This document shows, one piece after another, positions 50,335 through 51,890 of a DNA stretch of 64,000 nucleotides (the stretch's first letter is position 1; every line of letters begins with the position of its first letter). A program made the position numbers and the translations under genes. The notes below the pieces were generated by a model. It was not told the DNA's origin. It saw only the letters and a list, made by a program, of their open reading frames with translations, and did not search any database. Where the stretch lies: assembly GCA_020724465.1 (NCBI GenBank), contig DYGX01000008.1:62001-126000 (forward strand). The letters run 5' to 3'. Source of the stretch: Thermoflexus sp. GTDB taxonomy: Bacteria > Chloroflexota > Anaerolineae > Aggregatilineales > Aggregatilineaceae.

Positions 50335-51186
50335 ATGCCGCCTGATGCGCCACCTGCCGCAGGCTATGCGGTCGACGACCTGATCGCCGTCTGTATCGCC
50401 CGGCAGGTCGAAGACGGCGATCTGCTGGCGCACGGGCTGGCGACTCCGCTCGTCGCGGCGGGGTACATCCTCGCCAAGCGGACCCACGCGCCGCGCGCGG
50501 TCTTCGCCTCGGCCATCGGACAGGGTGTGGTGCAGGATTGGGCGCCGCTGGGCCTGGCGCACGCCGAAGCCCTGTGGCTGGGCAAGGCGCTGGCTCATGC
50601 CAGCTTTGTGACCATTGCCGCCGACCTGCTGCACACCTACGCGCCGAAAGAGTTCTTCCGCCCGGCGCAGATCGACGCCGCGGGCAACACCAACAACCTC
50701 GCCATCGGGCGCCACTACGATCGCCCGCGCCTGCGGCTGCCGGGGTCCGGCGGCGTGCCGGATGTGAGCGTATTCTCCGAGCGACTGTACCTCTACGTCC
50801 CGCGCCACTCGCGCGCCGTCTTTGTGCCGCGCGTGGACTACGTCAGCGGCCTGGGGCACAGCCCGCAGCGGCGCGCCGGGCAGGGGCCGCGATACCTCGT
50901 CAGCGATCTGGGGCAGTTCGATTGGGCGGACGGGCGGATGCGCCTGGTCACGCTGCACCCCGGCGTGACCATCGAGCAGGTGCAGGCGAAGACCGGCTTC
51001 GAGCTGGCCATCGCGCCCGATGTGCACGAAACGCCGCCGCCCACCCCCGAAGACCTGCGCCTGCTGCGCGAGGAGATCGACCCGCTCGGTGTGCGGCGGC
51101 TGGAGACACTGGCCGGCGCGGCCCGGCGCGAGCATCTGCGGGAGATCCTGAGCAAAGAGCAGCAAAAAGCAGCGAAGAACAGCTAG
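50335..51186 (+). CDS. CoA-transferase family I, beta-type subunit
   Basis: A 283-residue GctB/IpdB-like subunit. It has VDDLIAVCIARQVEDGDLLA, then LAKRTHAPRAVF, a glycine-rich loop, LRLPGSGGVPDVSV, and LVTLHPGVTIEQVQAKTGFE. In true CoA-transferases a catalytic Glu sits in the loop after the first strand set. Here the corresponding stretch (about residues 57-64) reads FASAIGQG, with no Glu, as in IpdB-like hydrolases. The last 11 codons lie in the decamer repeat array, so the tail SKEQQKAAKNS is repeat-derived. The likely partner is the alpha subunit at 47373. Confidence 0.78.
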   Translation: MPPDAPPAAGYAVDDLIAVCIARQVEDGDLLAHGLATPLVAAGYILAKRTHAPRAVFASAIGQGVVQDWAPLGLAHAEALWLGKALAHASFVTIAADLLHTYAPKEFFRPAQIDAAGNTNNLAIGRHYDRPRLRLPGSGGVPDVSVFSERLYLYVPRHSRAVFVPRVDYVSGLGHSPQRRAGQGPRYLVSDLGQFDWADGRMRLVTLHPGVTIEQVQAKTGFELAIAPDVHETPPPTPEDLRLLREEIDPLGVRRLETLAGAARREHLREILSKEQQKAAKNS

Positions 51187-51360
51187 GAACAGCAAAAAGC
51201 AGCCAAGAGCAGCCAAGAGCGGCTAAGAACAGCTAAGAACAGCTAAGAACAGCTAAGAACAGCTAAGAACAGCTAAAAAGCAGCTTTTAGCTGCCTTTTG
51301 CTGCCTTTAGCTGCCTTTAGCTGCTTTCCGCTGCTTTTCGCTGTATTTTGCTGCCCCTAG
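51151..51360. repeat. Decamer repeat array in inverted orientation
   Basis: Thirteen decamers of the form AGCNAAGAAC run from 51151 to 51280. Eight decamers of the form CTGCYTTTNG run from 51281 to 51360. The junction AGCTAAAA (51271-51278)/TTTTAGCT (51285-51292) forms a perfect stem with a 6-base loop. The arms stay in register, so the transcript could fold into an imperfect hairpin of about 80 bp per arm. It fills the gap between two convergent genes and overlaps the last codons of the beta subunit and the stop of the VOC gene. A bidirectional terminator is likely. Confidence 0.88.
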
Positions 51361-51764
51361 CTGTCCAGCACCGTGAACAGCGTGATCTGCATCCCGTCCG
51401 GCGCGCGCAGGCGGACGTTGCGGTGACGCCAGGGCGTGACCACCGGCCCGCCGACGCGCTCCGCCCCGGCAGCAACCAGCGCCTCGGCGGTCGCTTCGGA
51501 GTCGGTGACTTCAAGCGCCAGGCGCACCGGCCCGGAAGCGCCCGCCTTCCCCGCCTCAACCCGGTCGACGAGTTCGGTTTGATCGACCGAGAGCAGTTCC
51601 AGCGTGGCGCGGCCCGCGTCGAGGATCATGCCGCGCCCGGTGGGGTTATCCCACGCTTCGATGACCGGCAGCCCGAACACATCGCGGTAGAAACGAACCA
51701 GCTCATCGTAATTCTCAACGGTCAGTGCGAGACGCAGTTCGCGGATAGGGGATTCCTGCGGCAT
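51357..51764 (-). CDS. VOC family (glyoxalase/bleomycin resistance-like) protein
   Basis: A 135-residue vicinal-oxygen-chelate fold. It begins with RELRLALTVENYDELVRFY, then DVFGLPVIEAWDNP, and ends with LRAPDGMQITLFTVLD. Metal-ligand positions of the family are not all clear, so it may be a binding protein. AAAGGAG before the ATG at 51764 fixes the start. The stop lies inside the decamer array. Confidence 0.88.
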   Translation of the reverse strand: MPQESPIRELRLALTVENYDELVRFYRDVFGLPVIEAWDNPTGRGMILDAGRATLELLSVDQTELVDRVEAGKAGASGPVRLALEVTDSEATAEALVAAGAERVGGPVVTPWRHRNVRLRAPDGMQITLFTVLDS

Positions 51765-51860
51765 GGTCGGCTCCTTTGATCGTAGCGTCCGCTGTAGCGA
51801 TGACTGACGCGCAGATGATACGAAAATCGGACTGCCGCGCCAAACGCCCCGCACAAGACA

Positions 51861-51890
51861 ACGGCGCGGGATCGTCCGATCCCGCGCCGT
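51861..51890 (-). terminator. Terminator of transketolase
   Basis: ACGGCGCGGGATCG (51861-51874) and CGATCCCGCGCCGT (51877-51890) form a perfect 14-bp stem. On the minus strand it is followed by TGTCTTGTG. It lies 45 bases after the transketolase stop. Confidence 0.75.

What the first reader, a model, noticed from the sequence alone, without database searches (positions are those of the whole stretch)
51151..51360. A 10-bp repeat array that reverses direction and forms a giant imperfect hairpin between convergent genes
Seen directly: 13 units of AGCNAAGAAC, then 8 units near to the reverse complement, in exact 10-base steps with a perfect 8-bp stem at the turning point. The array runs into the last 11 codons of the CoA-transferase beta gene and up to the stop of the VOC gene. 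A decamer period is close to one helical turn and is not a multiple of three, so gain or loss of units would shift the protein end. It may be a bidirectional terminator, a processed structured RNA or a hotspot for slippage. I know of no named element with this form.
Basis: partly seen in the sequence, partly recalled or inferred. Interest (0 to 1): 0.7.

Follow-up and report, generated by a model that had tools for sequence, protein, structure and literature searches.

The report
Genus-wide family of stepped palindromic repeats
A 10-letter DNA word, repeated forwards and then backwards so that it can fold into a long hairpin, sits at many gene ends in the genomes of one uncultured bacterial genus, where it often supplies the last letters and the stop signal of the gene.

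Summary
In detail: window 51151-51362 holds 13 decamers AGCNAARRRC, then 8 in reverse complement. It is one member of a dispersed family. A 1.26 Mb sample of the same 4.42 Mb genome holds 28 such elements, 16 two-armed. All 3 genomes of the genus that were searched carry the family; 15 others of the family and 395 others drawn from the class do not. Every two-armed element has units pointing inward: 16 of 16, 45 of 45 in a wider, overlapping set. Elements favour gene 3' ends: 21 of 36 edges facing a 3' end overlap that gene, against 0 of 20 facing a 5' end. At the window locus the array supplies the C-terminal tail of a CoA-transferase subunit whose relatives in other genera have other tails. 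Sites are stable between species; unit numbers are not. The arms do not covary; they are less alike than expected. Closest architecture found in print: the LIMP palindromes of an algal mitochondrion. Best reading: a copied, slippage-expanded palindromic repeat, probably acting as a bidirectional transcript-end hairpin. That function is inferred, not shown.

The parts
51151..51280 (+). forward arm, 13 decamers, A-type (AGCNAAGARC; GA at unit positions 7-8 in 77% of units)
51281..51282 (.). turning point; I see no shared centre in the 45 centres printed
51283..51362 (-). reverse arm, 8 decamers, B-type (6 of 8 units fit AGCNARRRGC; GA at positions 7-8 in 0% of units)
51151..51186 (+). array part that codes the last 11 residues (SKEQQKAAKNS) and the TAG stop of the CoA-transferase subunit gene
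51357..51362 (-). part of the outermost unit of the reverse arm, holding the TAG stop (51357-51359) of the VOC gene
   Evidence: gap -6
51270..51293 (+). terminator-like hairpin at the turn (9 pairs, 6-nt loop, then CCTTTTGCTG); another on the - strand at 51299-51275
   Evidence: consensus match only
50335..51186 (+). CoA-transferase subunit gene (Pfam PF01144), 283 aa
51357..51764 (-). VOC/glyoxalase-like gene (Pfam PF00903), 135 aa; start chosen by my own script
51779..51806 (.). site that holds no element here but a second two-armed element in the sister species (L083:4414-4547)

Best explanation
This is one copy of a genus-specific, dispersed, internally repetitive palindrome. Shown by sequence: dozens of copies per genome; two inward-pointing decamer arms; preference for gene 3' ends; stop codons and some C-terminal codons supplied by the array; stable sites with changing unit numbers; flanks not shared between copies. 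Inferred: copies reach new places by an unknown copying route, then lengthen and shorten by slippage until they fill much of the dispensable space between a stop codon and the next gene. Inferred: transcripts of the flanking genes end in a long, mismatch-rich hairpin that acts as a bidirectional transcript end (weak intrinsic termination at the turn and/or cleavage of the duplex by an RNase III-type enzyme, and shielding of the 3' end). Units with T at position 4 (AGCTAA, AGCTAG) put a stop in every frame within three units, which would make intrusion into a gene end nearly harmless.
For: Family: 314 two-unit matches (up to 2 mismatches) in the genome against 0 for the reversed pattern; 3 of 3 genus genomes and 0 of 15 others of the family, 0 of 395 others drawn from the class. 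Architecture: 16 of 16 two-armed elements in the sample and 45 of 45 adjacent arm pairs in a wider, overlapping set point inward, which puts the T-rich strand on the 3' side in both directions. Location: 11 of 28 elements in convergent gene pairs against 161 of 1051 called pairs (p 0.002); 21 of 36 edges facing a 3' end overlap that gene, 0 of 20 facing a 5' end. Two-armed elements alone: 7 of 16 convergent, 15 of 22 and 0 of 10 edges. 12 of the 21 overlapping stops lie at unit positions 4-6. In convergent pairs the array covers a median 96% of the space between the stops. Tails: 12 other-genus CoA-transferase loci that reach the stop have other tails, 10 of 12 with EG(V/A)L. At another convergent pair 6 of 14 other-genus loci keep the partner gene, without array. 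Terminator-like hairpins at the turn on both strands. Hairpin plus T-run occurs at 39 of 158 array-free convergent ends against 3 after shuffling. Long-stemmed LIMPs interrupt RNA-seq coverage (PMC4524435, sections 6, 9 and part 1 of 10 read).
Against: No transcript data. Arms show no covariation and are less alike within elements than between elements, clearly so at purine positions 6-9, so no sign of selection for a good stem. T-runs in the units are short. Array ends score as terminators about as often as ordinary ends (convergent 7 of 22 against 39 of 158; tandem 3 of 14 against 76 of 384), and divergent regions score too (18 of 158). Some copies lie upstream of genes: 3 of 28 in divergent pairs, 6 of 8 two-armed tandem copies end 7-22 bp before the next start, and the extra sister-species copy ends 22 bp from the VOC start; a strong terminator there would harm. 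In 8 of 16 elements at least one strand folds no better than random fragments of equal length from this 67% GC genome. The inward rule could be a founder effect and the 3' preference mere tolerance.
Confidence: 0.5

Rival explanations
1. A selfish or neutral dispersed repeat without function, kept only where it does little harm (gaps at gene 3' ends), growing by slippage.
For: Arms do not covary and fall into two types; some copies lie in 5' regions; gene tails differ from relatives where the array intrudes; edges come close to whatever coding sequence is next, 7-22 bp from start codons in 6 of 8 two-armed tandem copies.
Against: All two-armed copies point inward, and 12 of 13 testable sites are occupied in both of two species about 93% identical in DNA; a founder effect and slow loss could explain both.
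Confidence: 0.38
2. An array of binding sites for a DNA- or RNA-binding protein (nucleoid, segregation or iteron-like).
For: Strong unit consensus AGC.AA...C in 90 arms with a free fourth base.
Against: Period exactly 10 drifts out of helical phase over long arrays; unit number varies between species; location is tied to gene 3' ends.
Confidence: 0.08
3. Independent local slippage at each site (ordinary minisatellites).
For: Higher-order repeats within arms; neighbouring units somewhat more alike than in permuted order (0.571 against 0.544, sd 0.009).
Against: One consensus at dozens of sites, of which only one pair among 51 shares flanks apart from one local overlap, is hard to get independently.
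Confidence: 0.02
4. Assembly artefact.
For: The window genome is a 56-contig assembly.
Against: Arrays at the same gene junctions in another MAG at 12 of 13 testable sites.
Confidence: 0.01

Closest known systems
LIMP and HyLIMP palindromes of the Lobosphaera incisa mitochondrion (PMC4524435; passages, sections 6, 9 and part 1 of 10 read)
   Same: Internally repetitive palindrome: direct units, turn, complementary units; arms of unequal length; dispersed; intergenic; lineage-specific; HyLIMP has a 10-nt unit; unit number varies.
   Different: LIMP unit AACCA with an invariant 7-nt loop, 19 copies; HyLIMP unit AACCAGAGCC, 5 copies, with complementary changes in the two branches; an organelle. 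Here: degenerate decamer AGCNAARRRC, no shared centre, no covariation, bacterial chromosome, overlap with stop codons.
TAACTGA heptamer repeats of Beggiatoaceae, cyanobacteria and Bacteroidetes (PMC4679880; abstract and section 7 read)
   Same: Short-unit tandem arrays dispersed in intergenic space of bacterial genomes.
   Different: Direct repeats of a 7-mer, one inverted case in 170 sets, two to six copies in the main genome, mostly just upstream of start codons.
REPIN elements (PMC3116915; abstract and outline read)
   Same: Dispersed extragenic inverted doublets predicted to form hairpins.
   Different: Doublets of REP sequences with a spacer, linked to RAYT transposases; here the arms are decamer arrays and no genus-specific Y1 transposase was found.
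Bidirectional intrinsic terminators (general knowledge, no call)
   Same: Hairpin between convergent genes with A-run before and T-run after.
   Different: One short stem rather than arms of up to 17 decamers.

Membership tests
LIMP-type internally repetitive palindrome | Direct units followed by complementary units around a turn, unequal arms | tested here: met
   45 of 45 adjacent arm pairs inward, arm lengths mostly unequal
LIMP-type internally repetitive palindrome | Invariant loop sequence | tested here: not met
   no shared centre by eye in 45 centres
LIMP-type internally repetitive palindrome | Compensatory changes between branches (reported for HyLIMP) | tested here: not met
   arms agree less within than between elements
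LIMP-type internally repetitive palindrome | Interrupts RNA-seq coverage when the stem is long | not testable with these tools
   no transcript data
REPIN/RAYT | Associated Y1 (RAYT) transposase | tested here: not met
   Y1_Tnp in 17 of 18 genomes of the family, so not genus-specific; no array in the stretches around the 3 G000 places (L236 and L237; L092). RAYT type itself was not tested
REPIN/RAYT | Fixed REP doublet with conserved end motif (end motif recalled) | tested here: not met
   variable numbers of decamers, no shared centre
Reverse-transcriptase-borne element | Reverse transcriptase in the genome | tested here: not met
   RVT_1 in 0 of 3 genus genomes (completeness 99, 96 and 73%)
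Bidirectional intrinsic terminator | Hairpin plus T-run on both strands between convergent genes | tested here: inconclusive
   found at the window locus; 7 of 22 array-bearing convergent ends in the sample, about the rate of ordinary ends
Bidirectional intrinsic terminator | Transcripts end there | not testable with these tools
   no transcript data
Known Rfam RNA family | Match above gathering score | tested here: not met
   14 matches, all below gathering score; best 28 bits against 54, E 0.001, a microRNA family

The most novel reading that the evidence does not exclude
A new class of bacterial mobile DNA: palindromic decamer satellites that copy themselves to gene ends by a route using neither reverse transcriptase nor a genus-specific Y1 transposase, overwrite the last codons with a built-in three-frame stop, and serve the genus as bidirectional transcript ends, with the two arms kept unlike each other (A-type and B-type) so that the RNA still folds through G-U pairs while the DNA avoids a perfect, unstable palindrome.
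Probability: 0.15. Interest if true: 0.8.

Novelty: new variant of a known kind. Interest (0 to 1): 0.58.

Why it matters
It is a chromosome-wide bacterial version of an architecture that my eight searches found in print only for an algal mitochondrion: a palindrome whose stem is itself a tandem repeat. Because arrays overlap stop codons, they change protein C termini, and they offer a natural series of hairpins of different length at gene ends, which makes termination, processing and palindrome stability testable. How a short-unit array spreads to dozens of sites without a visible carrier is an open question.

Tried and rejected
Independent slippage at each site: disfavoured, since dozens of sites share one consensus and flanks are not shared. 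Hairpin covariation: negative. The first arm-type test is biased, because those loci were found through an A-type pattern; I repeated it on 16 two-armed elements of the sample (0.456 against 0.339, p 0.005; pooled arms p 0.009). Larger mobile unit with conserved flanks: one pair of 51 elements shares a 66-bp stretch, plus one local overlap. RAYT or reverse transcriptase as carrier: not supported. Period-10 arrays in other genera: none in 255 kb from nine other genomes of the family; more was not looked at by this method. Helical phasing: rejected by arithmetic. Clustering: 9 neighbour distances under 7 kb against 3.9 expected, highest of 5000 simulations 11; not pursued.

Limits. The 1.26 Mb sample was not cut by the pattern, but its contigs were known to hold matches and one piece is the window, so the extrapolated copy number may be high. 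The same scan of the reversed sequence gives 12 arms against 44, with scores up to 45.7; 34 of 44 real arms, and 9 of 12 one-armed elements, score higher. The reversed sequence also contains the real arrays read backwards, so this control may overstate chance; it gave 2 adjacent arm pairs, both outward. An opposite weak arm scoring over 20 was found for 2 of 6 forward-only and 0 of 6 reverse-only elements. One element, L081:6777-7069, is compound: a short reverse arm below the cut-off lies inside its forward arm. For one-armed elements alone the convergent excess is not significant (4 of 12, p 0.10). Genes were called by my own codon-usage script. One search stopped with an error after 6 of 15 loci and was redone in another form, without an array scan; the absence of arrays in those other genomes rests and on the 130 bases printed. 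An earlier count said 14 testable sister sites with 13 occupied; recounting one search gives 13 of 21 testable, 12 occupied, used here. Literature: eight searches of an open-licence library; they do not prove absence from print.

Full report
Observation. Window 51151-51280 is 13 decamers AGCNAARRRC in exact steps; 51283-51362 is 8 decamers in reverse complement (Tandem Repeats Finder). The window gives 15 two-unit matches against 0.12 expected. Both strands of 51141-51375 fold far better than shuffled versions (z -6.5 and -7.8). The stops of both convergent genes lie inside the array. Pfam names the neighbours CoA transferase and glyoxalase.

A dispersed family. The two-unit pattern, up to 2 mismatches, occurs 314 times in the genome of the window and 0 times when reversed. 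With up to 1 mismatch it occurs in 3 of 3 genomes of the genus (154, 123 and 37 times) and in 0 of 15 other genomes of the family. The three-unit pattern, up to 2 mismatches, occurs in 1 of 396 genomes drawn from the class, the window's own; the draw held no other genome of the genus. An exact three-unit scan of the collection of 84,980 species genomes gave 15 stretches: 7 from one MAG named Anaerolinea sp. Tomsk_5_66_7, 1 from Anaerolineae SJ484, 7 single hits in unrelated organisms (the tool warns that the window's own genome may be left out). None of the 7 single hits shows two inward arms in the stretch held.

Sample. I read 1,263,646 bases from five contigs, four of them whole or nearly so and 104 kb of the window's contig. 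They hold 28 element groups: 16 two-armed (all forward then reverse), 6 forward only, 6 reverse only; 44 arms against 12 in the reversed sequence, where no arm scores above 45.7; 34 of 44 real arms do. This would extrapolate to about 100 elements in the genome, perhaps too many, since these contigs were known to hold matches. In the wider, pattern-selected and overlapping set all 45 adjacent arm pairs point inward.

Place in the genome. Of the 28, 11 lie in convergent gene pairs, 14 in tandem and 3 in divergent, against 161, 729 and 161 of 1051 pairs (genes called by my own script). The excess of convergent pairs has p 0.002; two-armed elements alone give 7 of 16, p 0.006, one-armed alone 4 of 12, p 0.10. 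Of 36 array edges facing a gene 3' end, 21 overlap the gene; of 20 facing a 5' end, none does (Fisher p 6e-6). Of the 21 overlapping stops, 12 are at unit positions 4-6 (11 TAA or TAG, 1 TGA), 7 have their last base at unit position 1 or 2, and 2 lie elsewhere. TAA plus TAG make up 17 of 21 against 52% of all called genes (p 0.006). The array covers a median 96% of the space between the stops in convergent pairs and 70% of the intergenic space in tandem pairs. In 6 of 8 two-armed tandem cases it ends 7-22 bp before the next start.

What the array did to genes. The window CoA-transferase subunit ends ...REILSKEQQKAAKNS; its ortholog in G002 ends ...RQILSEEQRRIAKNS at the same unit. The 12 other-genus loci that reach the stop carry other tails, 10 of 12 with EG(V/A)L; the G003 locus is cut off by a contig end. 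The simplest reading is that the array replaced the old tail. At a second locus (L060) G000 and G002 end TPLLKSS, while 12 of 13 other loci end in G, G003 among them, and none has an array (given 15 of the 18 loci). The neighbour differs in G003, so this is not a clean empty site. At a third locus (L078) the tail kept its length; of 14 other-genus loci that reach the stop, none has an array, and 6 keep the same convergent partner, its last aligned codon within about 60 bp, whereas about 200 bp of array fill the gap in G000.

Stability. Of 21 element groups in G002, 13 have both flanks in the G000 sequence held. Of these 12 are occupied in both genomes, all 12 with different detected unit numbers (four by one unit or one weak arm only), and 1 is empty in G000. 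The empty one is next to the finding: G002 has a second element between the VOC start and the transketolase end, absent at window 51779-51806. Whether G002 gained it or G000 lost it is open; the G000 site holds a short AGCG-TC-CGCT palindrome that could be a remnant (read).

Arms. Arms fall roughly into A-type (AGCNAAGARC, 31 arms) and B-type (mostly A at position 7, 59 arms). Within elements the arms differ in type more than random pairing gives, also in the sample (0.456 against 0.339, p 0.005). Neither the free base at position 4 nor the purines at 6-9 covary between arms; they agree less often than between elements, clearly at the purines, weakly at position 4. So there is no sign of selection for a good stem. 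Most differences are A/G, which in RNA leave a G-U pair on one strand and an A-C mismatch on the other. That arms are kept unlike to avoid an unstable perfect palindrome is my inference.

Mechanism. The inward rule puts the T-rich strand at the 3' side in both directions, as a bidirectional terminator needs, and the scan finds terminator-like hairpins at the turn on both strands. But array ends score as terminators about as often as ordinary ends (convergent 7 of 22 against 39 of 158, tandem 3 of 14 against 76 of 384; 3 of 158 array-free convergent ends after shuffling; 18 of 158 divergent regions). In 8 of 16 two-armed elements at least one strand folds no better than random genome fragments of the same length (elements 50% GC, sample 67%). 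Some copies lie upstream of genes. No RNA data were available. I put transcript-end function at 0.5 and a functionless tolerated repeat at 0.38.

Known kinds. The nearest architecture found is the LIMP of the Lobosphaera incisa mitochondrion (PMC4524435: passages, sections 6 and 9 and part 1 of 10 read): (AACCA)m-loop-(TGGTT)n, 19 copies, and five HyLIMPs with a 10-nt unit; LIMPs with longer stems interrupt RNA-seq coverage. TAACTGA heptamers (PMC4679880: abstract and section 7 read) are dispersed but direct and mostly upstream of starts. REPINs (PMC3116915: abstract and outline read) are dispersed inverted doublets linked to RAYT transposases. A survey of structure-forming repeats (PMC4060949: passages read) gave nothing on this form in the passages shown. 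Y1_Tnp is present in the genus but not specific to it, and no reverse transcriptase was found in 3 of 3 genus genomes. Rfam has no match above its curated score.

Noticed in passing
G000:C4, left of the elements at 117510 and 122942 (L097, L098): Two elements 5 kb apart share a 66-bp flank (95% identical) with a CCGCTAGCGG palindrome, perhaps another dispersed repeat.
   Followed up: no
L083:4414-4547: The sister species has an extra two-armed element between a putative VOC promoter and its start codon; the site is empty in the window.
   Followed up: partly
L142:5899-5969 (G015): A heptamer array AACCAAC, about 10 copies, in another genus of the family.
   Followed up: no
L042:2298-2476 and L045:6686-6898: One-armed arrays of a similar decamer in Paenibacillus camerounensis (18 units) and in a Methanimicrococcus MAG (22 units, partly a 20-bp period).
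   Followed up: no
G000:C4:11464-11799 and places in other genomes of the family: Y1 transposase domains inside open frames of about 940-1440 residues in many genomes of the family.
   Followed up: no
window 51861-51890: A 13-pair hairpin with a 4-nt loop just after the transketolase gene, on the - strand, listed as terminator-like.
   Followed up: no
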